Shown here: one piece after another, positions 14,881-25,797 of the stretch
How positions within the stretch are numbered: the stretch's first letter is position 1
Layout: each line of letters starts with the position of its first letter
Assembly: GCA_913058145.1 (NCBI GenBank)
Contig: CAJXQM010000001.1
Span: 186,001 to 250,000 of the forward strand
DNA: 64,000 nucleotides
Direction: 5' to 3'
Origin: an uncultured Colwellia sp.
Lineage (GTDB): Bacteria; Pseudomonadota; Gammaproteobacteria; Enterobacterales; Alteromonadaceae
The notes under the pieces: generated by a model
What the model saw: only the letters and a program-made list of their open reading frames with translations
Database searches by the model: none
What the model was told of the DNA's origin: nothing
Translations under genes and position numbers: made by a program

Positions 14881-15696
14881 ATGAAACATATTCACAGCTA
14901 TTACTCTCCAAACAATTTGTATAACAACATAATTAAGGGTCTTAATAACCTTGGTAAAGATTTATCTAAGGTCACACTTGGTGATCTTCAGCCTGTTGAT
15001 GAATTTCACATTCGGGGTGATATGGCAACTAAAGAGTTGATTAAACTAGCTAATTTTACTCCCAATATGAACATACTTGATGTAGGCTGTGGTGTTGGCG
15101 GATCAACACGCCGTTTGTCACATGAAACAGGTTGTCATGTTACGGGTATAGATTTGAGTGATGAATATATAGACGCCGCAGAAAGGTTAACGCAATTACT
15201 CAACATGCAGGACCGTGTCAAATTCAACGCCGCAAGTGCGCTTGACTTACCCTTTGAGGACAATACTTTTGACGGTGCTTGGTCAATTCAGATGAACATG
15301 AACGTCGAAGACAAACTAGGGTGGTTACAGGAAATTTATCGTGTACTCAAACCTGGAGCACGTGCCGTTTTGTATGAGGTATGTGGCAATAAGAATACAC
15401 CCATTTATTTTCCGGTTCCATGGGCGCAAGACAGCTCTATGAACTTTTTGATACCGCAGGAACCATTCCGTGATGTGATTACATCCGCTGGGTTTAAGGT
15501 TGAAGTATGGAACGAGAAGACCGATCTGGCACAGCATGCCTTTGCACGTATGAAAAAACCCGAGGGTGATTCAGCACTGCCAGAACTAGGTTTGCATATG
15601 CTCATTGGAAATGACTTTAAGGTTAAGTCTTATAATATGCGCCGTAACCTTGATGATGAGCGCATTAGTTTGATAGAAACTTTAGTAATAAAGTAA
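14881..15696 (+). CDS. SAM-dependent methyltransferase (class I, SMT/UbiE-like)
   Basis: A 271-residue soluble methyltransferase. Motif I is ILDVGCGVGGSTRRLS (about residue 65), the acidic end of beta 2 is VTGIDLSDEYIDAAERL, and motif III is LQEIYRVLKPGARAVLYEV. These match small-molecule methyltransferases of the sterol/tocopherol/glycine-betaine group. The acceptor is not identifiable. A TATAAT hexamer at 14822-14827 could be part of its promoter. No ribosome-binding site is obvious. It is isolated between divergent and unrelated genes. Confidence 0.8.
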   Translation: MKHIHSYYSPNNLYNNIIKGLNNLGKDLSKVTLGDLQPVDEFHIRGDMATKELIKLANFTPNMNILDVGCGVGGSTRRLSHETGCHVTGIDLSDEYIDAAERLTQLLNMQDRVKFNAASALDLPFEDNTFDGAWSIQMNMNVEDKLGWLQEIYRVLKPGARAVLYEVCGNKNTPIYFPVPWAQDSSMNFLIPQEPFRDVITSAGFKVEVWNEKTDLAQHAFARMKKPEGDSALPELGLHMLIGNDFKVKSYNMRRNLDDERISLIETLVIK

Positions 15697-15823: not shown

Positions 15824-16657
15824 ATGAATCGTCGAATCTTACCCTCTATATTATTTAGTTTATGCACCATTGGTGTTTTATTGCTTGCTTGGTTAGAGCG
15901 CGATGAATATTGGTACCATGCTGAAGAGGGAATAGGTTATGCCTTTGGCATCACAGGATCCACTATGATGGTATTGCTTTTGCTGTATCCTGCTCGAAAA
16001 TATTGGAAACCAATGCGCCATGCTTTTAAAGTACACCACTGGTTTCGTTTACATATGGTTTTTGGTGTCTTAGGTCCTTGTTTTATTCTCTTGCATAGTA
16101 ACTTTAATTTAGGTTCCTTAAATAGCAGTATCGCCTTATTTTCCATGTTACTTGTTGCGGGTAGTGGGTTGATAGGACGCTACGTCTATCAAAAGTTACA
16201 TCGAGGATTATATGGAGAGCAAATCAGCTTTTCTGATCTCGATGGTGATTACCAACTTGCCAAGATTCACTTTTCATCTCTAAGCTTTCTCACCAGTGAT
16301 ATTCAACAAACGTTGCATCAAATTGAAAGTAAACTCACTCTGCGCACCGTTCCCCTTCGAATCAGTTATTGGGCAAGGTGGAAAATTAACACTATTCGTC
16401 GTCAATCCAAATTATCGATTAAAGCGCTGTGGTTAACTGCGAATGAAGATACAAATAAGAGTAAAGATAAAAATAATCAAGAAGATATATTAAAGGATAT
16501 CAACTATTGGAATGATGGATTATTGAGCCTTGAAAAAATGGCTAATTATGCTTTGTATACACGGTTATTCTCTCTCTGGCATGTGTTTCATTTACCTATA
16601 TTTTTTATGATGATTATCACAGCCACTGTTCATATATTTGTGGTACACATTTATTAG
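15824..16657 (+). CDS. Membrane b-type cytochrome-like protein of a multihaem cytochrome operon
   Basis: A 277-residue inner-membrane protein with four N-terminal hydrophobic helices, a charged loop of about 120 residues, and a final helix. Histidines suited to bind haem b lie in HHWFRLHMVFGVLGPCFILLH (helix 3) and in LWHVFHLP and TATVHIFVVH at the C-terminus, as in cytochrome b561/ferric-reductase-like proteins. It probably passes electrons from the quinone pool or a cytoplasmic donor to the cytochromes encoded next. A GTG two codons upstream is an alternative start. It begins an operon with the two multihaem genes and the barrel gene. Exact family not certain. Confidence 0.65.
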   Translation: MNRRILPSILFSLCTIGVLLLAWLERDEYWYHAEEGIGYAFGITGSTMMVLLLLYPARKYWKPMRHAFKVHHWFRLHMVFGVLGPCFILLHSNFNLGSLNSSIALFSMLLVAGSGLIGRYVYQKLHRGLYGEQISFSDLDGDYQLAKIHFSSLSFLTSDIQQTLHQIESKLTLRTVPLRISYWARWKINTIRRQSKLSIKALWLTANEDTNKSKDKNNQEDILKDINYWNDGLLSLEKMANYALYTRLFSLWHVFHLPIFFMMIITATVHIFVVHIY

Positions 16658-16678
16658 CAATACTAGATTGGAGTCAGT

Positions 16679-18418
16679 ATGGGTATAAACGTTTTAAAAT
16701 TTTCTGTTCTTTATAATATTGGCACTAGTATTGGCGACTTGCTTGACTCTATTAGGAACGATTATTTTAAATTCAGTAATGTCATTTTGGTTATACTAAT
16801 AACTTTGTGTCTGTTTACGAATAATAACGTTTATGCATTTGAAGAGAGCAACACTAAATTGAGTTTAAAACAATTGCTGTTAATGCCGGGAGATCTTACT
16901 AGTCCCCATGCAAAAATTGAGAGTAAATGCCAACAATGTCATCTTCATTTTGATAAAGAAAACCAGTCACCACTCTGTTTAGATTGCCATGAAGATATTG
17001 ATAATGATCTTAAACAAAAACGAGGCTTCCACAGCAAAATAGCCAAAGATGATATTAAACAATGCAATGGTTGTCATACCGATCATAAAGGGCGAGACAT
17101 TGATATAACGTCGTTAGATAAGACACACTTCGATCATAATAAAACTGAATTTCCACTTAAAAAGAGTCATTTGCCGCTTGCTTGTAGTGATTGTCACACA
17201 TCAACAGATAAAAACTTCCGTTTATCCCTCAAAAAAGAAACCTGTACTAGTTGTCATGATGATCCCCATCAAGGAAAATTAAAGGATACTTGTACTAGTT
17301 GCCATGACGAAAAAAATTGGCAACAAACCAAATTTGATCATAAAAACACTGATTTTTTACTGAAAGGTAAGCACGACGAACTGTCTTGTCAATCATGTCA
17401 TGTTAATGATGTTGCCGTAGAAATAGGGAGCCAGTGTGTTACTTGCCATTTATCTAAAGATACGCATTTAAATACATTTGGCAATAAATGTGGTTCTTGT
17501 CATACAGAGCAAGGTTGGGATAAAACGCAATATGATCACTTTAAAGAAACTAAATATCGCTTAGTTGGAAAACATAAAGAGCTAAGCTGTGAGAGTTGTC
17601 ATTTACCTGCGAGCAGAACTAATAACAAATTAGATAAACATACTAGTAAACTTGAAAAAACCTGTAACGGTTGTCATAAAAAAGATGACGTGCACTTAGG
17701 TAACAATGGTACTGACTGTCAGCAATGTCACGATAATAACGATTGGGAAAAAGTACGCTTTGATCACGATGAAGAAACGAGTTTTAGTCTTCAAGGTGCT
17801 CATGAAAAGTTAGCTTGTCAGGCTTGTCATTTACCTGGCTTACCTGAAAAAAACATAACGAATAAAAGCATAACGAAACAAAGTGATGACAAACAATTGA
17901 AAGCAGCAAGAACATGCCATGACTGTCACCAAATATCTGATGCTCACAATGGTACGTTAGGTAAGAATTGTCAGCAATGTCATCAACAGAAAAAGTGGCA
18001 TGAGCAGGTTACTTTTAATCATGACTTTACTTTGTTCCCGTTAACGGGAGCACATCAGTTGCAAGTTTGCCAAACATGTCATTTTTCAAGTGACTTTACC
18101 GTAAAGCTATTCAGTTGTGTTGATTGCCACCAAGAAGATGATCCTCATCAAAACTCATTAGGAAGTAAGTGTCAGCAATGCCATAACTCCGCTAGTTGGA
18201 ATTCGTGGCAGTTTAACCATCAAGAGCAAACAGACTATTCTCTTGAAGGTGCACATAATAATTTATCTTGTGATTCATGCCATCGAATTGAGGATGCAGA
18301 ACCTTTAACGCCGCCATCGCAGTGTGTTGCTTGTCATCAGTATGATGATGTTCACCAAGGTGCTTTTGGTAAAAATTGTCAGCAATGCCACAATATGGAC
18401 AGTTTCAATGATTTTTAA
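16679..18418 (+). CDS. Secreted multihaem cytochrome c, 21 CXXCH motifs
   Basis: A 579-residue protein with a hydrophobic export segment at about residues 35-53 (ending NNNVYAF), then 21 CXXCH haem-binding motifs by count. From about residue 150 they fall into repeats of three haems: FDH-x-T-x-F-x-L-x-G-x-H-x-x-L-x-C-x-x-CH, then CxxCHxxDxHxG, then GxxCxxCHxxxxW. This resembles cytochrome c3/c7-like repeat modules. Extra histidines (FDH, GAH, DVH) can supply the second axial ligands. GGAG precedes the ATG. The next cytochrome gene overlaps its 3' end. Likely periplasmic or outer-membrane electron wire. Confidence 0.88.
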   Translation: MGINVLKFSVLYNIGTSIGDLLDSIRNDYFKFSNVILVILITLCLFTNNNVYAFEESNTKLSLKQLLLMPGDLTSPHAKIESKCQQCHLHFDKENQSPLCLDCHEDIDNDLKQKRGFHSKIAKDDIKQCNGCHTDHKGRDIDITSLDKTHFDHNKTEFPLKKSHLPLACSDCHTSTDKNFRLSLKKETCTSCHDDPHQGKLKDTCTSCHDEKNWQQTKFDHKNTDFLLKGKHDELSCQSCHVNDVAVEIGSQCVTCHLSKDTHLNTFGNKCGSCHTEQGWDKTQYDHFKETKYRLVGKHKELSCESCHLPASRTNNKLDKHTSKLEKTCNGCHKKDDVHLGNNGTDCQQCHDNNDWEKVRFDHDEETSFSLQGAHEKLACQACHLPGLPEKNITNKSITKQSDDKQLKAARTCHDCHQISDAHNGTLGKNCQQCHQQKKWHEQVTFNHDFTLFPLTGAHQLQVCQTCHFSSDFTVKLFSCVDCHQEDDPHQNSLGSKCQQCHNSASWNSWQFNHQEQTDYSLEGAHNNLSCDSCHRIEDAEPLTPPSQCVACHQYDDVHQGAFGKNCQQCHNMDSFNDF

Positions 18419-20006
18419 CACTAGAATACCTCATATACTCTTTACCTGCTTACTAACGTTGTTAGTGACTATGTTTTTGAGTAACGCATCTATAGCGCAA
18501 ACATTTGATCACCAAATGACCTCTTTTCCTCTGTTAGGTCAGCATGATTTTGTTGAGTGTCAAGATTGTCATATCAATGGTCAGTTCAAAGGAACACCAT
18601 CAGAGTGTCAGTTGTGTCATGGCAATGCTGGTATGATTGAAGCGAGTCAGAAGCCATCCGATCATATGCGAACTAATGACCGTTGTAGCGATTGTCATTT
18701 GTCAGTTAATTGGAGTGCGATCCCACGTTTTGAACATCAATCGGCACAAGGACAATGCACAACTTGTCATAATGATGTGATCAGCGAAGGTAAGGGTAAT
18801 GAACACATTCTTACCAGCCAAAATTGTGAATCTTGTCATCTAGACAACAACTGGCAATCTGTTATCAACGTCGACCATTTAGAGGTAATAGGGAGTTGCA
18901 CAAGTTGTCATAATAATACTGTTACTGAGGGTAAACCGGCGGATCATTTTCCAACCATTAAAGAGTGCGATGATTGTCATACATCGATCGCATGGTTACC
19001 TGCTACGTTTGATCATACAGAAGTAACACAAGCGTGTAGCTCCTGTCATAACAGTACCTTTGCAACCGGAAAAAATACCTCTCATATTGTTTCTACTGCT
19101 GTTTGCGAAGCCTGCCATACCACGTTAGCATGGGAACCCGTACTTAGAGTTGATCACGAAAATGTAATAGGTTCATGTGTAAACTGCCATGACGGTAATA
19201 CTGCCACAGGTAAAGATACACAACATATTCTCTCAACAACCGCATGTGAAGCATGCCATTCAAGCACAACGTGGTCTCCTGAATTTCAGGTTGATCATGA
19301 CAATGTCTTAGGCTCATGTACAACGTGTCATAATGGCAATATTGCGACAGGCAAACCAGGTGATCATTTAGTGACTACGTTAGAGTGTGATTTTTGCCAT
19401 ATAAACAATGCTTGGTTACCTGCCACGTTTGACCACAGTGATGTCAGTAATAATTGCAGTAGTTGTCATGATGGTAATACGGCAACAGGTAAAGATACAC
19501 AGCATATTTTGTCCACACAAACTTGTGAAGCATGTCACTCGCCATTAACTTGGTCGCCGGTAATAACAACCGATCATAATAATGTTTTAGGCTCCTGCAG
19601 CAGTTGTCATAATGGTAATATTGCGACAGGAACTGATAATGGTCACTTCATTACGTCACTTGAGTGCGATAGCTGTCACAGTATACAAAATTGGAATTTT
19701 AGTAATTACGTTCATAGTGGTAGTTATCCAGGTGAGCATAGAACGCCACTAGATTGTGTTGATTGTCATACCAATAATAATGAAATAATCTCTTGGAAAT
19801 TTCCTTCTTATGCGCCAGATTGTGCAGGTTGTCATGCTAACGATTATGAAGCGGATGAACATGACAAGACAGGAAACATTTTTTATAACGTTTCCGAGCT
19901 AAGGGATTGTGCTGGAGCTTGTCATGAATATACAGACAGCTCTTTGAGCACTATTAAAAAGATTCGTAATAGTGAGCATCGTGTTAGTGATAGTGAGTTT
20001 GACTAA
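18408..20006 (+). CDS. Secreted multihaem cytochrome c, 19 CXXCH plus one CX3CH motif
   Basis: The chosen start MIFNTRIPHILFTCLLTLLV gives a signal peptide ending SNASIAQ; the open frame extends upstream to 18324, but that part lies inside the previous gene. It overlaps that gene by 11 bases. Nineteen CXXCH motifs were counted, plus CAGACH near the C-terminus, a CX3CH variant. The central part repeats a two-haem unit, DHxxVxGSCxxCHxGxxATGKxxxHxxxTxxCExCHxxxxW, at least five times. This unit differs from the three-haem unit of the upstream cytochrome. Likely partner in the same electron chain. Confidence 0.88.
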   Translation: MIFNTRIPHILFTCLLTLLVTMFLSNASIAQTFDHQMTSFPLLGQHDFVECQDCHINGQFKGTPSECQLCHGNAGMIEASQKPSDHMRTNDRCSDCHLSVNWSAIPRFEHQSAQGQCTTCHNDVISEGKGNEHILTSQNCESCHLDNNWQSVINVDHLEVIGSCTSCHNNTVTEGKPADHFPTIKECDDCHTSIAWLPATFDHTEVTQACSSCHNSTFATGKNTSHIVSTAVCEACHTTLAWEPVLRVDHENVIGSCVNCHDGNTATGKDTQHILSTTACEACHSSTTWSPEFQVDHDNVLGSCTTCHNGNIATGKPGDHLVTTLECDFCHINNAWLPATFDHSDVSNNCSSCHDGNTATGKDTQHILSTQTCEACHSPLTWSPVITTDHNNVLGSCSSCHNGNIATGTDNGHFITSLECDSCHSIQNWNFSNYVHSGSYPGEHRTPLDCVDCHTNNNEIISWKFPSYAPDCAGCHANDYEADEHDKTGNIFYNVSELRDCAGACHEYTDSSLSTIKKIRNSEHRVSDSEFD

Positions 20007-21742
20007 TGAAAAAATTTAAAAAGGTTATCACCATTATTGGGCTAGTTTCTGCTCATATGTATTGTGTTTCTAGTTACGCTATAGAGCAAGATCCTGCGAC
20101 AGACTTACAATTAAAAGCACCTCAATCATTAATATTATTTGAACAGGCTAAAGAAGCCCTTACGGATAAAAATTATCCGTTAGCGACAACGTTACTAACC
20201 CGTTTATATCAACAAGGTAGTGACAGCGAACAGCAGTTTGCTTTGGAGTTTTTAGGTGTGTCTCGTGAGAAAAAAGGTCAGTTGGCTTTTGCTAAGCAGG
20301 CTTATCAGTTGTTTTTAGAAAACTACCCTGAGGTTGATACCGCACCTAGAGTAAAAATGAGATTAAACAACTTAATTGGCATTCAAACGTTAAGTGAAAA
20401 TAGAAGTTTTAAAGAAAATAAAAAAGGTCGTAAGCGCCGTTCATCTTCTTACCTTAGAGGCAGTTTTGCAACCGATTATCGCCAAGCATTGTTAGTTGAT
20501 AATCTGGGTAATAGCCGCGATACCTTATCACTAGCTAATTTTGATCTGGATGCAAAAGGACATGCGGAGTTAGATGATTATAATGTAGGCTTTCGTGTTT
20601 CATTAGGACACTACCAAGATTTATTACCCGATTCAGATAAAACCAATGAACAAATTAGATACTTGAATTTTTCTGCTAACAGTGAAGATAACTTATACCA
20701 GTTAAAAATAGGCCGGCAACGTAGTCGAGGAAAAGGTGTTTTTGGTCGATTTGATGGTGTTATTTTAAGTAGTGAGTTTATCACTGATATGCAAGTTAAT
20801 GTTGTTGCTGGTTATCCTGTTTCCTCATCTAAAGTAACAACGTTAGACCCAGAGCGACAATTTTATGGGCTAAGTATTGATGTTGACAATAGTTGGCAAG
20901 ATATTGATTTTAGTGTTTTCTTGTTTGAACAATCCATCAATGACTTAACTGATAGGAGAGCTGTGGGTGGAGAGCTCAGTTATTTTAAAGATGCTGTTTC
21001 AGTCTTCTCTTTAGTTGATTATGATATTTTCTTTAATGAATTAAATGCTTTATTATTTTCGGGGAGTTACAGTACTGAATCTGATCAACGTTACTCTTGG
21101 TCACTTAACTACCGTAAAAATCCTTATGTTGGCACACGCAATGCGCTTATTGGCCAAAGTGTTGATAGTTTTACTGAATTACAAAACTTATTTATAAATG
21201 ATGAAGAAATATTGGATTTAGCGTTAGATAGAACTTTAACCAGTAAAACGGCATCATTACAATTTTTTCAACCAATTAATGAACGTTATGATGTGAGTGC
21301 TAGTATTACATGGATGGACTTAGCGAGTGCGCCTGAGTCGGGTGGAGTGCCTGCTATTTCAGAAAGTGGAGGGCAGTATTACACTAATACCTATTTGTCA
21401 GTAAGAAACCTTTATAGTGATCATGATACCAACAGTTTTGGTTTTCGTTATTCAGATTTATCACAGTCACAGGTTTATTCACTTTATGCAACAAGCCGAT
21501 ATCGTTTTAATAATGGAATTTCTATCACCCCTAAATTAAGATTTGATACCCGTAATAATGAGAACGGTACGAGTCAACAAAGTATCTCACCTACGTTTAG
21601 AATGCAATATCAAAGTCGAAAGCATTATATCTATGGTGATTTTGGTGGAATTTTCTATAATACAGAGTCGACGCTTTTTCCTGCTCAAAAAACGTCGATT
21701 TACTTTTTATATCTAGGATACCGTTACTATTTTGGTAGTTGA
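20006..21742 (+). CDS. Outer-membrane beta-barrel protein with N-terminal TPR-like segment
   Basis: A 578-residue protein with a signal peptide (MKKFKKVITIIGLVSAHMYC, cut near SSYA). Residues about 35-125 look like TPR helices (ILFEQAKEALTDKNYPLATTLLTRLYQ; LEFLGVSREKKGQLAFAKQAY). The rest alternates short polar and aromatic strands and ends in YLGYRYYFGS, an aromatic C-terminus typical of outer-membrane barrels. Its ATG overlaps the stop of the preceding cytochrome gene by one base, so they are translationally coupled. By analogy with MtrB-type porins it could house a cytochrome across the outer membrane, but no MtrB motif is recognised. Confidence 0.7.
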   Translation: MKKFKKVITIIGLVSAHMYCVSSYAIEQDPATDLQLKAPQSLILFEQAKEALTDKNYPLATTLLTRLYQQGSDSEQQFALEFLGVSREKKGQLAFAKQAYQLFLENYPEVDTAPRVKMRLNNLIGIQTLSENRSFKENKKGRKRRSSSYLRGSFATDYRQALLVDNLGNSRDTLSLANFDLDAKGHAELDDYNVGFRVSLGHYQDLLPDSDKTNEQIRYLNFSANSEDNLYQLKIGRQRSRGKGVFGRFDGVILSSEFITDMQVNVVAGYPVSSSKVTTLDPERQFYGLSIDVDNSWQDIDFSVFLFEQSINDLTDRRAVGGELSYFKDAVSVFSLVDYDIFFNELNALLFSGSYSTESDQRYSWSLNYRKNPYVGTRNALIGQSVDSFTELQNLFINDEEILDLALDRTLTSKTASLQFFQPINERYDVSASITWMDLASAPESGGVPAISESGGQYYTNTYLSVRNLYSDHDTNSFGFRYSDLSQSQVYSLYATSRYRFNNGISITPKLRFDTRNNENGTSQQSISPTFRMQYQSRKHYIYGDFGGIFYNTESTLFPAQKTSIYFLYLGYRYYFGS

Positions 21743-21778: not shown

Positions 21779-22450
21779 CTATTTGCTATAGATATACACG
21801 CCAGCAAGTAGATCTTTAAATTTACGTTCCATTTTTTGATTAACGATAGGATCACTTTCTTGATTGTTGTTATGAGGTGAAGATAATCGGAAAAATGTAT
21901 GTTTTTCTCCTTGATGCACAGCGACTAAAATTGTTTTTTTCTCACCTTTAAAGGTAAATAGCTCAAGCTTTTGTTTTTGTTTAGTCACAAGTGTCGTTGC
22001 TTTAGGTGACGAATCGGGTGTTAAGCCAGATTTACTCTGCCAAATACTTAATACCGCCTCTAAAGTAACTTGACCATTCATTCTAATAATAGCTAATTCA
22101 TAAAGGTTATTTTTATTGTCTTTACCATTAAATTTAAACGTAGCACTCGCAATACTTGTTTTATTTTTCTGTAATTGCCAACCATTCATGTCAGGCATAA
22201 TCAAAAAATTTGATATTGGCTCAGCATTTCTTTTTACAGACGGGGTGGTTTTTTGCTGTACAGCTGAATTAATAGGTGGTTTTATCCACCAATTAGGTTG
22301 AGCGATAGATTTCATTGAACTAAATTTATCATTGCTTTTAATGACTGAGTGTAGCTGTTTGCTCTCACTAGTCTCATTATTTTTTATAATGATGACAGTC
22401 GTTATCAATACTATAATGGCTACGGTAACTACTTTACTTTTTAATGACAT
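21779..22450 (-). CDS. Membrane-anchored protein of unknown function
   Basis: A 223-residue protein with one N-terminal transmembrane segment (VVTVAIIVLITTVIII) and a polar periplasmic part containing IMPDMNGWQLQKN and ATFKFNGKDNKNNLYELAIIRMNGQVTLE. The family is not recognised. It is the last gene of the minus-strand operon; the preceding ankyrin gene ends seven bases before it starts, and AGGAAT precedes its ATG. It converges with the barrel gene at 21742. Confidence 0.6.
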   Translation of the reverse strand: MSLKSKVVTVAIIVLITTVIIIKNNETSESKQLHSVIKSNDKFSSMKSIAQPNWWIKPPINSAVQQKTTPSVKRNAEPISNFLIMPDMNGWQLQKNKTSIASATFKFNGKDNKNNLYELAIIRMNGQVTLEAVLSIWQSKSGLTPDSSPKATTLVTKQKQKLELFTFKGEKKTILVAVHQGEKHTFFRLSSPHNNNQESDPIVNQKMERKFKDLLAGVYIYSK

Positions 22451-22457
22451 AACATTC

Positions 22458-24491
22458 CTAGTACTTTTTCAAAAGGGGTAAAATATCAGCTTTAGATTTT
22501 GCTAAATAAAAAGAATTTTCACCTTGATTGTTTTTTCTTTTGGGATTGGCTCCTGCGTCTAATAAGTATTTTACACATGAGGCACAATTACTTTTAATGG
22601 CTAACATTAATGGGGTAAAGCTATTGTTATTTCTTTGTTTAATATCGAGTGTTTCTCCATGTTTAGCTTGGTGATTAAAATGTAGTATTATTTTTAAAAT
22701 AGCCGGTTTACCTTGCGCAGCAAATAACAAAGCACTGTTAGCATTTGCTGTTTGTTTTTGTGCATTTGCACCGGCGGCTAATAATAATGTTACACAATCC
22801 TGGCAATCTTTAATTACAGCACGCATTAGCGGGGTATAACCTGAATTGTCAGCTTGTTCAATGTCACTTTTAGCATAAAGCAGCGCATTGATTAACTTAC
22901 TATTAGCGAAATCTGCGGCATACCATAAAGCACTACGGCCAGTGTCATTTCTCAAGTTAACATCAAGATCCATTGATAGCAGAAGGGTTGTTATATTTGT
23001 CAAATTTAATTCACTGGCTAGCAGTAAATATGAACGCTGCTGGTTATCTCGCCTGTTATCGGGAGGAATTACTCTAACAATTTCTTGAAAGGCATCTTCT
23101 TTTTTAAACTTAATAGCAAACCACAAAGGTGTTTCTTCTATTGGCCACTTTTGTAAAGTTTGTTCATTGGCGAGTAAGAGTAACTTTTTGAGCAATCGTA
23201 AATCATTATGGTTGATCGCGCTAACAAATAAATTACTGAGTTGCTTTTGCTCATTAGTTGTTAAGTTATTTACTGTTTTATTTGAATAAGTAAGCAACTC
23301 TATGGCGAGTTTGCTTTGCTCTTGATTGATAGCAATACTGATCGCATTATCCTTTTGAGGGTTTTCTTGCCATGCGCTATGTTTTAATCTTAGTAGTTCA
23401 TTAATAAGTAAAGGCTGCTTTTGTGCAACCGCAATGTTAAGTATGGGCCAAGCAAAATAGGGGCTTTTTTTATTCGTTGCTTGTAATTTTAGTGTTTGTA
23501 TTTTGTGACTTAAGGTTGCTTCAGCTTGCTTGCGATTAGTTTGTTTATCCTGAGATGATTTGAGTACTAACGTTAAACCTAATGCATTAGCATAATTTAA
23601 TGCACTTTTACCCTTTAAATCTGTTGTTGTTAGAACAGCTCCTTGGTTAATAAGTTGTTGAGCCATAGATTTGTTTTTTGCCATCACGGCTAAAATTAAC
23701 GGTGTTTCTTTTTTTAAGTTTACTACATTGATATCTGCTGTGTGTCTGATTAACATGCTAGCTGCTTGATAAATATTATTTTGTAGCGCGATATGCAGCG
23801 CGGTATTGCCAGCATTATCTAGGTTGTTAAATTGATGATTGCTATTTTGGCTTTTTATCGTTTTTATGATCCAAAGAGATATCTCTAGTTGTTGACTCTT
23901 TAGCGCGGTCATGAGTGGGGTGTTTTTTGAAATGATATGAGGCGTAAGCGTAAGTCTTGCCCCTTGCTGACATAGTTTAATAACGTTGGTTAATGATCCG
24001 CTTTTAATCGCTTTGATCAACTTTTTTTGTAATTGTTTTGACGTAATTAAACCGTTATTACTTATGAATAGAGAATCATAAAGTTGCTTTGCTTTACTAT
24101 TTCCTTGATTGTTAGATAACGCTAATAATAATTTAGCTTTATCTAAGTTTTTTGTTAATTCTCTACCTTGAGCATAAAGGGATCCAATTAAATAACTGGC
24201 TTTTTTATTTGATTTTGATGCTTTTAGCAACCAATATTCAGCTTTTTTTGTTGATTTTTTGACTGAATTACCTTGTAAATACAACAAGGCAAGTTGATAT
24301 TGTGCTTGGCTATTTCCTTCTTCAGCTAACGTTATTATATCAGGAAGGGCTTGCTGGTATTGGCCGGTAAGCAATAGTTGTTTAATTGAAATAGGTAAAT
24401 TGTTTTTTTGAGGGAGTTCTTTAGCAAAAACGCTAGTAATAGCACTTATTAATAGGATAAAAAATAATGTTTTCAATCTATTTAACGCCAT
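22458..24491 (-). CDS. Secreted Sel1/ankyrin repeat protein
   Basis: A 677-residue protein with a signal peptide (FFILLISAITSVFAKE). Residues about 40-130 look like Sel1-type repeats (AEEGNSQAQYQLALLYLQGN; ASYLIGSLYAQGRELTKNLDKAKLLL). Ankyrin repeats follow in two groups, about 180-310 (NAGNTALHIALQNNIYQAASMLI) and 480-670 (NSGYTPLMRAVIKDCQDCVTLLLAAGAN; TPLMLAIKSNCASCVKYLLDAGAN). It is probably a periplasmic scaffold. Its start overlaps the end of the ferredoxin/FAD gene by 14 bases, so expression is coupled. Partner unknown. Confidence 0.8.
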   Translation of the reverse strand: MALNRLKTLFFILLISAITSVFAKELPQKNNLPISIKQLLLTGQYQQALPDIITLAEEGNSQAQYQLALLYLQGNSVKKSTKKAEYWLLKASKSNKKASYLIGSLYAQGRELTKNLDKAKLLLALSNNQGNSKAKQLYDSLFISNNGLITSKQLQKKLIKAIKSGSLTNVIKLCQQGARLTLTPHIISKNTPLMTALKSQQLEISLWIIKTIKSQNSNHQFNNLDNAGNTALHIALQNNIYQAASMLIRHTADINVVNLKKETPLILAVMAKNKSMAQQLINQGAVLTTTDLKGKSALNYANALGLTLVLKSSQDKQTNRKQAEATLSHKIQTLKLQATNKKSPYFAWPILNIAVAQKQPLLINELLRLKHSAWQENPQKDNAISIAINQEQSKLAIELLTYSNKTVNNLTTNEQKQLSNLFVSAINHNDLRLLKKLLLLANEQTLQKWPIEETPLWFAIKFKKEDAFQEIVRVIPPDNRRDNQQRSYLLLASELNLTNITTLLLSMDLDVNLRNDTGRSALWYAADFANSKLINALLYAKSDIEQADNSGYTPLMRAVIKDCQDCVTLLLAAGANAQKQTANANSALLFAAQGKPAILKIILHFNHQAKHGETLDIKQRNNNSFTPLMLAIKSNCASCVKYLLDAGANPKRKNNQGENSFYLAKSKADILPLLKKY

Positions 24492-25797
24492 ATTTGGTTG
24501 CCACCATAATACCTGTTCTTTTCAAAAAAGGTGTGGGTAATACACCACCAGCACAGACAATTACTACGCTATTTTCTATCGTCTTTATCTCATTTTCAAT
24601 CGTTAATTGTACATTGTTTTTACTGATACTATTAACTTTTGAGCTCATATATAACTGTAATTGACCACAAGCGACTAGTGCCTCTACTCTTGCTCTGTTT
24701 TTAGCTTTTGCTCGATTAAAACTATCGCTTCGATAAGAAATACTGACACGACAACGGCCTAATTCGGCAATACTACACGCGGCTTCTAGCGCGCTATCAC
24801 CACCACCTACAATAAGTACATCTTCATTTTGGTACTGCTCAGCATCAATGAGTCGGTAAACAACTTTTGACTGTTCTTCACCTTCTACGCCTAATTTTCT
24901 TGGCGTTCCTCGTCTGCCTATCGCTAATAAAATGCTTTTGGTTTTGTAGACTCTCTCACTACTCGTTAAGTTTAGGTAACCTTTTTCATCGGTAGTAATA
25001 TCTAACATGGTTTCATTTTGATTTATTTTTAAGTCATGTTTTTTTATAAGTTCTAACCAAAACGTGAGTAATTTTTCTTTTGAGACTTCACCAAACTTAA
25101 CTTTACCAACAATGGGCATATGAGCGGGGGAGGTCATTACTAGTTTGCCTCGAGGAAAGTGACTGACTGTGCCGCCAGCAACATCTTGATCAATTGCGAC
25201 TATATTAAGCTGTTTCTCTTTAGCACCAAGCATGGCACTTAATCCTGCGGGACCCGCCCCTACGATAACGCAATCTACTATTGAAGGGTCAAGTTTTGGT
25301 TGTTTAGCAACATAGCTAGCAATTGAATCTATGGATTGTCGCCCTTGTTCAATGGAATTTTTTATCAATCCCATACCGCCCAGTTCGCCAGCAATGTATA
25401 TTCCTGGAATATTGGTTTGAAAATCTGGTGTTAACTCGGGAATATCAACCCCACGTTTTTCACTACCAAAAACCAAGGTGATTGCATTTTGCGGGCAAGA
25501 CGTTTTACAAGCACCGTGGCCGATACAATTGGCTGGATTAACTAAATAAGCATGCCGGTCAATCAGTCCTAACACATTTTGCTCAGGGCAAGCGCTGATA
25601 CAAGAAGCGCAGCCTAAACATTTTAGTGGGTCGATGATGGGGTGCAAACTAGCAGGCTCGGTTAAGCCATCAATTTTAGCTTGTGCTAGAAAATCTTTAC
25701 TGATGCGATGCTGTTTTTTTCGTTTATATAAATAAAAGGTGAGTATAAGTAACAATGGTGTTGTATAAATAAATAAAATAGTGAGTTCATTGGTCAT
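24478..25797 (-). CDS. Membrane-anchored ferredoxin/FAD-dependent pyridine nucleotide oxidoreductase
   Basis: A 439-residue fusion. One N-terminal transmembrane helix (LTILFIYTTPLLLILTFYLY) anchors it. Two 4Fe-4S motifs follow, CLGCASCISACP and CIGHGACKTSCP (about residues 59-104). A thioredoxin-reductase-like module comes next, with FAD motif VGAGPAGLSAMLGA (about 183), NAD(P) motif VGGGDSALEAACSIAE, and the C-terminal VIVCAGGVLPTPFLKRTGI. No redox-active CxxC of thioredoxin reductase is seen, so it likely moves electrons between NAD(P)H and a ferredoxin or quinone-linked partner. It may feed the diiron enzyme of its own operon or the cytochrome operon opposite. Confidence 0.8.
   Translation of the reverse strand: MTNELTILFIYTTPLLLILTFYLYKRKKQHRISKDFLAQAKIDGLTEPASLHPIIDPLKCLGCASCISACPEQNVLGLIDRHAYLVNPANCIGHGACKTSCPQNAITLVFGSEKRGVDIPELTPDFQTNIPGIYIAGELGGMGLIKNSIEQGRQSIDSIASYVAKQPKLDPSIVDCVIVGAGPAGLSAMLGAKEKQLNIVAIDQDVAGGTVSHFPRGKLVMTSPAHMPIVGKVKFGEVSKEKLLTFWLELIKKHDLKINQNETMLDITTDEKGYLNLTSSERVYKTKSILLAIGRRGTPRKLGVEGEEQSKVVYRLIDAEQYQNEDVLIVGGGDSALEAACSIAELGRCRVSISYRSDSFNRAKAKNRARVEALVACGQLQLYMSSKVNSISKNNVQLTIENEIKTIENSVVIVCAGGVLPTPFLKRTGIMVATKYGVK

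What the first reader, a model, noticed from the sequence alone, without database searches (positions are those of the whole stretch)
15824..21742. Possible transenvelope electron conduit built from 21- and 20-haem cytochromes, a b-type cytochrome and a TPR-barrel
Seen: four overlapping or closely spaced genes encode a His-rich inner-membrane protein, two exported cytochromes with 21 CXXCH and 19 CXXCH plus one CX3CH motifs, and an outer-membrane-barrel-like protein with an aromatic C-terminus. Known: porin-cytochrome systems such as MtrCAB pair a multihaem cytochrome with a barrel. Inference: this is a non-Mtr version spanning inner membrane to outer membrane. I recognise no MtrA, MtrB or OmcA motifs, so the set may be undescribed.
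Basis: partly seen in the sequence, partly recalled or inferred. Interest (0 to 1): 0.8.

Follow-up and report, generated by a model that had tools for sequence, protein, structure and literature searches.

The report
PCC3 electron conduit with flavoprotein partner
These genes encode a known but functionally untested kind of bacterial wire, called PCC3, that should carry electrons between the cell interior and the outside, and they come with a flavin and iron-sulfur protein that may plug the wire into the cell's NAD(P)H supply.

Summary
Four tightly spaced genes (15824-21742) encode a five-helix inner-membrane protein, a 21-haem cytochrome, a cytochrome with 19 CXXCH plus one CX3CH, and a TPR + barrel-like protein. 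The set is not undescribed: it is PCC3 (He et al. 2017, PMC5566968). The PCC3 features testable by sequence are met; the barrel is supported but unmodelled. PCC3's function is unproven in the passages I saw. In 369 class genomes PCC3's inner-membrane protein is in 42, G in 43, both in 41; the three mismatches hold contig-edge remnants of the other system. In 398 phylum genomes the same six carry full-length matches of both. A Sel1/ankyrin gene usually lies beside G. No passage that I saw in six PCC3 papers mentions G. Inferred circuit: NAD(P)H - FAD - Fe-S - two b haems - 21-haem wire - barrel - extracellular wire, probably outward. Structure prediction was lost, so the barrel rests on sequence periodicity.

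The parts
15824..16657 (+). A: PCC3 inner-membrane protein (IMP), predicted di-haem b cytochrome, 277 aa, five helices
   Evidence: WX3HX13H at residues 73 and 252, SGXXG at 114; both kept in 30 of 30 aligned sequences
16679..18418 (+). B: periplasmic multihaem cytochrome (pMHC), 579 aa, 21 CXXCH
   Evidence: of 79 B-labelled ORFs with 8 or more CXXCH, 46 have 21, 17 have 18, 11 have 24, 5 other
18408..20006 (+). C: extracellular multihaem cytochrome (eMHC), 532 aa from ATG 18408 (ORF open from GTG 18324), 19 CXXCH + 1 CX3CH
   Evidence: atypical last haem motif (CX3CH or CX4CH) in 42 of 50 C-labelled ORFs with an intact 3' end
20006..21742 (+). D: TPR + beta-barrel-like porin, 578 aa
   Evidence: BamD/YbgF-type TPR match 38-122; helical periodicity 38-125, beta periodicity 150-578
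21779..22450 (-). E: 223-aa protein with an N-terminal hydrophobic helix; seen only in close relatives
   Evidence: homologues in G120 and G092; no Pfam or NCBIfam match
22458..24491 (-). F: probably exported Sel1 + ankyrin repeat protein, 677 aa
   Evidence: N-terminal hydrophobic helix; ankyrin relative in 61 of 80 G loci, directly after G in 55 of the 74 where G was called
24478..25797 (-). G: membrane-anchored protein with two ferredoxin-type Fe-S motifs, FAD and NAD(P) sites, 439 aa
   Evidence: co-occurs with A in 41 of 369 class genomes and in the same 6 of 398 phylum genomes

Best explanation
The locus is a complete PCC3 porin-cytochrome system together with a cytoplasmic entry module that I did not find described. 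Proposed circuit: NAD(P)H reduces the FAD of G; electrons pass through G's Fe-S clusters to the two b haems of A, cross the inner membrane, enter the 21-haem periplasmic wire B, pass through the barrel of D (whose TPR domain, and in half of the aligned relatives a SPOR domain, should sit in the periplasm), and leave along C. F is probably an exported helical-repeat protein that scaffolds the periplasmic part. Net direction is more likely outward, disposing of cytosolic reductant on an extracellular acceptor. Shown: gene content, motifs, barrel-like periodicity, co-occurrence and linkage of G with PCC3. Inferred: cofactor occupancy, cellular location, physical contacts, direction, acceptor.
For: PCC3 identity: gene set and motif signature (against 12, 26). 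Amphritea atlantica DSM 18887, a published PCC3 example with 63 and 21 haems, is locus L105 with 63 CXXCH + 1 CX3CH and 21, with G and an ankyrin gene next door. G with IMP: both in 41 of 369 class genomes, IMP alone in 1, G alone in 2, Fisher p = 7e-51 without correction for relatedness; the three mismatches hold contig-edge remnants of the other system. In 398 phylum genomes the same six carry full-length matches of both (two of the six, G000 and G281, were also in the class sample). Linkage: of the 74 loci where G was called, 56 have IMP or MHC divergent on its left and 7 have the window's convergent layout; in L117 and the Emticicia plasmid L009, G is on the same strand as the IMP and cytochrome genes; in G194 G, F and porin share a strand. 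Five distant IMP relatives (L015-L019) lie beside a ~450-aa protein and a 7-CXXCH cytochrome; the two tested neighbours are FAD/NAD/2Fe-2S reductases of an unrelated family. ES-1 PCC3 genes are lower on Fe(II) than on thiosulfate (PMC8788666). The own genome gives no RuBisCO match.
Against: No PCC3 protein has been tested biochemically, here or in the passages I saw. G's nucleotide and partner are not shown; its FAD half is closest to YpdA/Bdr and thioredoxin or ferredoxin-NADP reductases, so thiol or ferredoxin chemistry is possible. He et al. propose inward flow to the quinone pool. In Sideroxydans CL21 the IMP gene of PCC3 copy 2 is significantly up in cells that oxidise iron. In some genomes G lies on another contig than IMP (for example G281 and G898; in G281 9 kb upstream of IMP hold no G), so tight linkage is not universal. 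No structure model could be made.
Confidence: 0.6

Rival explanations
1. PCC3 works as He et al. proposed: electrons from an extracellular donor such as Fe(II) flow inward through C, D, B and A into the quinone pool. G is an accessory, for example making NAD(P)H or serving another acceptor.
For: Published model; carriers include iron oxidisers, Gallionellaceae and vent bacteria; IMP of PCC3 copy 2 up with iron oxidation in CL21; the IMP histidine pattern also resembles quinone-active b cytochromes by He et al..
Against: Does not explain why G is almost never missing; both ES-1 PCC3 clusters go down on Fe(II); no RuBisCO match in the own genome, although a non-autotroph could still use Fe(II).
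Confidence: 0.25
2. G and A are a maturation pair: they carry reductant to the periplasm to keep apocytochrome cysteines or haem iron reduced while the giant cytochromes are assembled; they are not part of the conduit.
For: The FAD half of G resembles thioredoxin and bacillithiol reductases; in the Emticicia plasmid a CcsA/ResB-type assembly gene leads the cluster.
Against: G has no CXXC outside its Fe-S motifs; a CcsA-type gene beside PCC3 was noted only in L009 (I did not search the other loci for one); A's motifs are of a di-haem b cytochrome rather than a thiol carrier.
Confidence: 0.1
3. The cytochromes serve mainly as an electron store or metal/haem-binding surface structure and not as a through-conduit; D is a secretion or anchoring barrel.
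For: Haem count of C varies from 8 to 70 motifs while the cap is kept, and storage ('capacitor') is raised in PMC10734462.
Against: The b-type IMP and the Fe-S flavoprotein that go with them make sense only for electron flow; about 25-28 residues per haem is typical of wire-like cytochromes by He et al..
Confidence: 0.05

Closest known systems
PCC3 porin-cytochrome cluster (He et al. 2017; S. lithotrophicus ES-1 Slit_0867-0870 and Slit_1446-1449; Amphritea atlantica)
   Same: Same four genes, same motif signature of the inner-membrane protein, 21-haem pMHC, variable eMHC, barrel-like porin.
   Different: The passages I saw describe four genes; here G and F are shown to go with them, also in the published example Amphritea (L105). 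The window porin has a TPR domain and no SPOR match.
MtrCAB / MtoAB / PioAB
   Same: Barrel plus multihaem cytochromes proposed to work as a transenvelope conduit; C and B pass the MtrC/MtrF domain II-IV model.
   Different: D has no MtrB/PioB match; decahaem models below cut-off; 21 and 20 haem motifs instead of 10; a b-type protein and flavoprotein at the inner membrane (CymA comparison recalled).
PCC4 (He et al. 2017)
   Same: IMP with the same histidine motifs; subgroup II has an Fe-S protein beside the IMP.
   Different: No extracellular cytochrome; IMP of another family according to He et al.; PCC4 was not searched for here.
Flavoreductase / b-type protein / 7-haem cytochrome operon of related bacteria (L015-L019)
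   Same: NAD(P)H-type flavoprotein beside an HX13H b-type protein and a multihaem c-type cytochrome.
   Different: Flavoprotein of another family (FAD_binding_6, NAD_binding_1, Fer2); no giant cytochrome in the 1.5 kb flanks read.
NADPH oxidase / ferric reductase electron exporters
   Same: Proposed route NAD(P)H, FAD, two b haems, across the membrane (He et al. name the ferric reductase resemblance; the NADPH oxidase comparison as an exporter is recalled).
   Different: No FRD (PF01794) match for A; flavoprotein is a separate protein of another family.

Membership tests
PCC3 | Clustered genes for IMP, pMHC, eMHC and porin | tested here: met
   the same set in Amphritea L105 (porin there only as fragments at the locus edge)
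PCC3 | IMP about 300 aa, five TM helices, WX3HX13H on TM3 and TM5, SGXXG on TM4 | tested here: met
   residues 73, 252 and 114; 277 aa; five helices by hydropathy
PCC3 | pMHC median 21 haems, eMHC large and variable, 22-39 residues per haem | tested here: met
   21 and 20 motifs; 27.6 and 26.6 residues per haem for the precursors. The eMHC is at the small end (published median 34)
PCC3 | Outer-membrane beta-barrel porin | tested here: inconclusive
   Beta periodicity in 150-578 and scattered barrel-family hits among relatives; no structure model
PCC3 | Homology to a named PCC3 example | tested here: met
   Amphritea atlantica L105: ORFs matching A, D (fragments), F and G plus 63+1 and 21 haem cytochromes as published
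PCC3 | Electron transport across the envelope | not testable with these tools
   Needs biochemistry; 'functionally unverified' also in PMC12442390
MtrCAB/MtoAB/PioAB | MtrB/PioB-type porin | tested here: not met
   D: no MtrB_PioB match at E up to 1; own genome: one match elsewhere, 19.4 bits, cut-off 23
MtrCAB/MtoAB/PioAB | Decahaem MtrA/MtoA-type cytochrome | tested here: not met
   21 and 20 motifs; TIGR03508 at 37 (B) and 75 bits (C), cut-off 192
Ferric reductase-like transmembrane (FRD) | PF01794 match of A | tested here: not met
   No match for the window A or in the 10-family table of the 30 members of A3
Thioredoxin or bacillithiol disulfide reductase (for G) | TrxR-type CXXC or YpdA model over cut-off | tested here: not met
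   CXXC spacing only inside the Fe-S motifs (Cys list); TIGR04018 141.5 bits, cut-off 339.9; TRX_reduct 72.8, cut-off 343

The most novel reading that the evidence does not exclude
PCC3 is not a quinone-linked iron oxidase but a split, NADPH-oxidase-like exporter: a membrane-anchored Fe-S flavoprotein (G) drives NAD(P)H electrons through a di-haem b cytochrome straight into an envelope-spanning 21-haem wire and out through a periplasm-tethered barrel onto a surface wire of adjustable length, bypassing the quinone pool.
Probability: 0.4. Interest if true: 0.75.

Novelty: new member of a known kind. Interest (0 to 1): 0.5.

Why it matters
PCC3 occurs in iron oxidisers, symbionts and marine bacteria, yet its function and direction are unknown. 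A near-obligate NAD(P)/FAD/Fe-S partner suggests where the cytoplasmic end of the wire plugs in, gives a well-conserved marker gene for finding such systems, and turns the open question (electron uptake or export, quinone or pyridine nucleotide) into a two-protein assay.

Tried and rejected
Mtr/Mto membership: rejected. A single-sequence scan of genome contigs with D confirmed no relative, so the last scan used the G alignment. Structure prediction of D and A was the planned test of barrel and haem sites; both jobs were lost, and for D it was replaced by a periodicity test, which gives neither a reliable strand number nor a fold match. In that test residues 1-30 of the family mean also scored z = 3.1, so the measure is not perfectly clean. 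PDB profile search for A gave only hits with E of 0.19 or worse; for D the hits were TPR proteins and one SPOR-type match, DamX. GC of the region (0.35-0.38) is like the rest of the window (0.33-0.39), so GC gives no sign of recent transfer, although none of the 7 same-genus genomes shown has it. Promoter and terminator counts were at shuffle level and are not used. The upstream methyltransferase (14881-15696) was considered as part of the operon and dropped, since no relative of it appears in the four family loci.

Selections and limits: of 56 IMP-positive class genomes (E <= 1e-3), 42 with E <= 1e-15 (own included) entered and 14 weaker ones were dropped; the cut-off was set after seeing the gap (1.9e-16 to 1.5e-7), and the genome lists were copied by hand. 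In the family sample 10 of 196 match at E <= 1e-3, 5 of them strongly (own included). Neighbourhoods were fetched for 20 stretches and 10, not for every positive genome. A1 holds 14 sequences; A2 the window and 29 of the 41 ORFs labelled porin; A3 the window and 29 of the 65 labelled IMP. Conservation figures of A1 to A3 come from different sets and are only roughly comparable. G was hidden by a longer overlapping ORF in 6 of 80 loci. One search kept the best 80 of 541, so 70 of 80 is not a random sample. C-labelled ORFs are mechanical calls with 8 or more CXXCH and include a few fragments and at least one doubtful frame.
Full report
OBSERVATION. The four genes are real and at the stated place. 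The A-B gap is 21 bp, B and C overlap by 11 bp if C starts at ATG 18408, and C and D overlap by 1 bp, so one operon with translational coupling is likely. B has 21 CXXCH; C has 19 CXXCH and one CX3CH; 2000 shuffles never exceed 3. A has five hydrophobic helices; B, C and D have N-terminal hydrophobic helices of export type. In the own genome (3.0 Mb, 97% complete by the tool's figure) all six Cytochrome_C7 matches fall in B or C, the MtrB_PioB model gives one match below cut-off elsewhere, and no RuBisCO large-chain match is found. Ordinary mono- or few-haem cytochrome c domains do occur elsewhere in the genome (12 PF00034 matches).

IDENTITY. He et al. 2017 (PMC5566968; I read section 15 and passages) define PCC3 as a porin, an extracellular cytochrome (median 34 haems), a periplasmic cytochrome (median 21) and an inner-membrane protein of about 300 aa with five helices, two WX3HX13H motifs on helices 3 and 5 and SGXXG on helix 4. 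Protein A has these: W73-H77-H91 on helix 3, S114-G118 on helix 4, W252-H256-H270 at helix 5, and 30 of 30 aligned sequences, the window included, keep them. Residues per haem are 27.6 (B) and 26.6 (C), within the published 22-39; C, with 20 motifs, is smaller than the published median. As an external anchor, the published example Amphritea atlantica DSM 18887 (63 and 21 haems) came back as locus L105 with 63 CXXCH + 1 CX3CH and 21 CXXCH. The window is therefore a PCC3 member. PCC3 remains a prediction in the passages I saw: PMC10734462, PMC8788666, PMC12442390, PMC13386937 and PMC12016527. PMC8788666 finds both ES-1 clusters lower on Fe(II) than on thiosulfate.

A FIFTH COMPONENT. Downstream on the other strand lie E, F and G. 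G (24478-25797) has an N-terminal hydrophobic helix followed by basic residues, two ferredoxin-type motifs (CX2CX2CX3C and CX2HX2CX3C), a dinucleotide-binding site GAGPAG (FAD), a second one GGGDSA (NAD(P)), and no CXXC outside the Fe-S motifs. Its FAD half resembles YpdA/Bdr and thioredoxin or ferredoxin-NADP reductases, all below their curated cut-offs. G is well conserved (mean column identity 61% in 14 sequences; A 41% and D 28% in 30 sequences each; different sets). Presence was tested in the same 369 class genomes: A at E <= 1e-15 in 42, G at E <= 1e-60 in 43, both in 41 (Fisher p = 7e-51, relatedness not corrected). The three mismatches are contig-edge cases: G372 has porin and an 11-motif cytochrome beside G, G293 a 4-motif fragment beside G, G385 a 115-aa G fragment beside a 21-motif gene. 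In 398 phylum genomes full-length A (E <= 1e-80) and full-length G (E <= 1e-180) occur in the same six genomes, two of which (G000, G281) were also in the class sample; below them come four A matches at 2e-16 to 3e-18 and two partial G matches at 1e-69 and 6e-61, which I read as other families without having tested them. Among the 80 best named G loci, IMP is seen in 65, a cytochrome of 6 or more motifs in 64, porin in 38, an ankyrin gene in 61, and 70 have at least one of IMP, cytochrome and porin; each of the 10 others meets a contig end within 5 kb on at least one side. By record title these loci include Gammaproteobacteria, Alphaproteobacteria (among them Bradyrhizobium sp. STM 3843, another PCC3 carrier named by He et al.), Betaproteobacteria and two MAGs labelled Nitrospira or Nitrospirae.

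ARRANGEMENT. Of the 74 loci where G was called, 56 have IMP or cytochrome genes divergent on its left, 7 have the window's layout with F/G convergent to the porin, 1 has them to the right on the same strand, 10 none. G120 has the same D, E, F, G order as the window, and in G194 the porin is on the same strand as G and F. In L117 G, F, IMP, cytochromes and porin are on one strand. In the Bacteroidota plasmid pEMTOL02 (L009) A keeps two HX13H and SGXXG on the expected segments, G is 46% identical, the cytochromes have 23 and 40 CXXCH, the next gene is a 538-aa protein without Pfam match, no ankyrin relative was detected, and a CcsA/ResB-type assembly gene leads. G thus looks like core, ankyrin protein and TPR like accessories. 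Linkage is not universal: in G281 and G898 G and IMP are on different contigs.

PORIN AND EXTRACELLULAR CYTOCHROME. D looks two-part. Residues 38-125 show helical periodicity (peak at 100 degrees) and match BamD/YbgF TPR models weakly; residues 150-578 show a 180-degree peak, with an alternation score of z = 5.0 and 0 of 2000 shuffles as high for the family mean (z = 2.1 and 45 of 2000 for the window sequence alone), and 16 strand-like segments by a rough rule. Residues 1-30 also scored z = 3.1 in the family mean, and the TPR stretch z = -0.7. Among 30 family members 24 match the BamD model, 20 TPR_16, 15 SPOR and 1 AMIN, and a few match barrel families; SPOR and AMIN are, from my own knowledge, peptidoglycan or septal binding domains. 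The window D has no SPOR match. Of 50 C-labelled ORFs with an intact 3' end (8-70 CXXCH + CX3CH motifs), 34 have CX3CH and 8 more CX4CH in the last 90 residues, so repeats vary while an atypical last haem motif is kept in 42 of 50. Of 79 B-labelled ORFs, 46 have 21 motifs, 17 have 18, 11 have 24 and 5 another number.

MECHANISM. Inference, marked as such: the basic residues after G's single helix suggest that its FAD, NAD(P) and Fe-S part is cytoplasmic, where it could feed A's cytoplasmic b haem. Indirect support: five distant A relatives in the same bacterial family (L015-L019, E 7e-5 to 2e-9) lie between a ~450-aa protein and a 7-CXXCH cytochrome; the two neighbours tested (L015, L018) are FAD_binding_6 + NAD_binding_1 + Fer2 reductases, unrelated in family to G; another relative (L020) lies beside a cNMP/4Fe-4S protein. 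So this type of b protein is found with NAD(P)H- or Fe-S-type proteins in more than one setting. Direction: from textbook potentials (not computed here) NAD(P)H to iron or manganese acceptors is downhill, and outward electron movement is also favoured by the membrane potential, while the reverse needs energy. With no RuBisCO match in this genome and lower PCC3 expression on Fe(II) in ES-1, I lean to export, at moderate confidence. Against it stand the published inward model, the iron-oxidiser habitats and the CL21 expression data.

NOVELTY. The four-gene conduit is known. The near-obligate G, the F partner and the TPR/SPOR/AMIN make-up of the porin were not found in print with these searches: PCC3 + ankyrin + cytochrome (0 papers), porin-cytochrome + ankyrin (0), a five-term search with NADPH and ankyrin (0), a six-term search with FAD-dependent and 4Fe-4S (1 paper on Desulfovibrionaceae, PMC11434368, listing only), porin-cytochrome + NADPH + PCC3 + inner membrane protein (only He et al.) and PCC3 + SPOR + peptidoglycan (2 unrelated papers, listing only). 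In He et al. 'ankyrin', '4Fe-4S' and 'TPR' occur 0 times, 'NADPH' once in a general remark; 'ankyrin' also occurs 0 times in PMC10734462, PMC8788666 and PMC12442390. One search lists only six papers with PCC3 and extracellular electron; PMC13386937 and PMC12016527 were searched for PCC3 only. Supplements and figures could not be read and most subscription papers are not held, so the neighbours may be drawn or listed there.

Noticed in passing
L009 (NC_018749.1, Emticicia oligotrophica plasmid pEMTOL02): A PCC3-like set with G and a CcsA/ResB-type assembly gene, all on one strand, on a Bacteroidota plasmid: possibly a self-contained conduit kit.
   Followed up: partly
L015-L019: Five related bacteria have an operon-like row: ~450-aa flavoreductase (FAD/NAD/2Fe-2S in the two tested), HX13H b-type protein, 7-CXXCH cytochrome. 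Looks like a smaller NAD(P)H-to-periplasm electron line.
   Followed up: partly
L020 1-3256 (-): IMP-like protein beside a protein with two cyclic-nucleotide domains and 4Fe-4S clusters; the next gene has 4 CXXCH and an FHA-like start (my reading, no call). Possible nucleotide-regulated electron transfer.
   Followed up: no
L056 656-12031: Two tandem extracellular cytochromes (69+1 and 23+1 motifs), and a G gene split in two ORFs (one search reports one TGA inside).
   Followed up: no
window:24478-25797 (-), G residues 60-101: The second Fe-S motif has an invariant His in place of one Cys, and the second Cys of the first motif is lost in 2 of 14 sequences (L009, L057): unusual cluster ligation.
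   Followed up: no
window:26496-30186 (-): T_hemolysin-family protein, AMP-binding ligase, haem-oxygenase-like iron protein and SDR genes in a row (Pfam); looks like an acyl-derived product pathway.
   Followed up: no
alignment A2, PCC3 porins: 15 of 30 porins match SPOR and one AMIN, suggesting tethering to peptidoglycan or the division site.
   Followed up: partly
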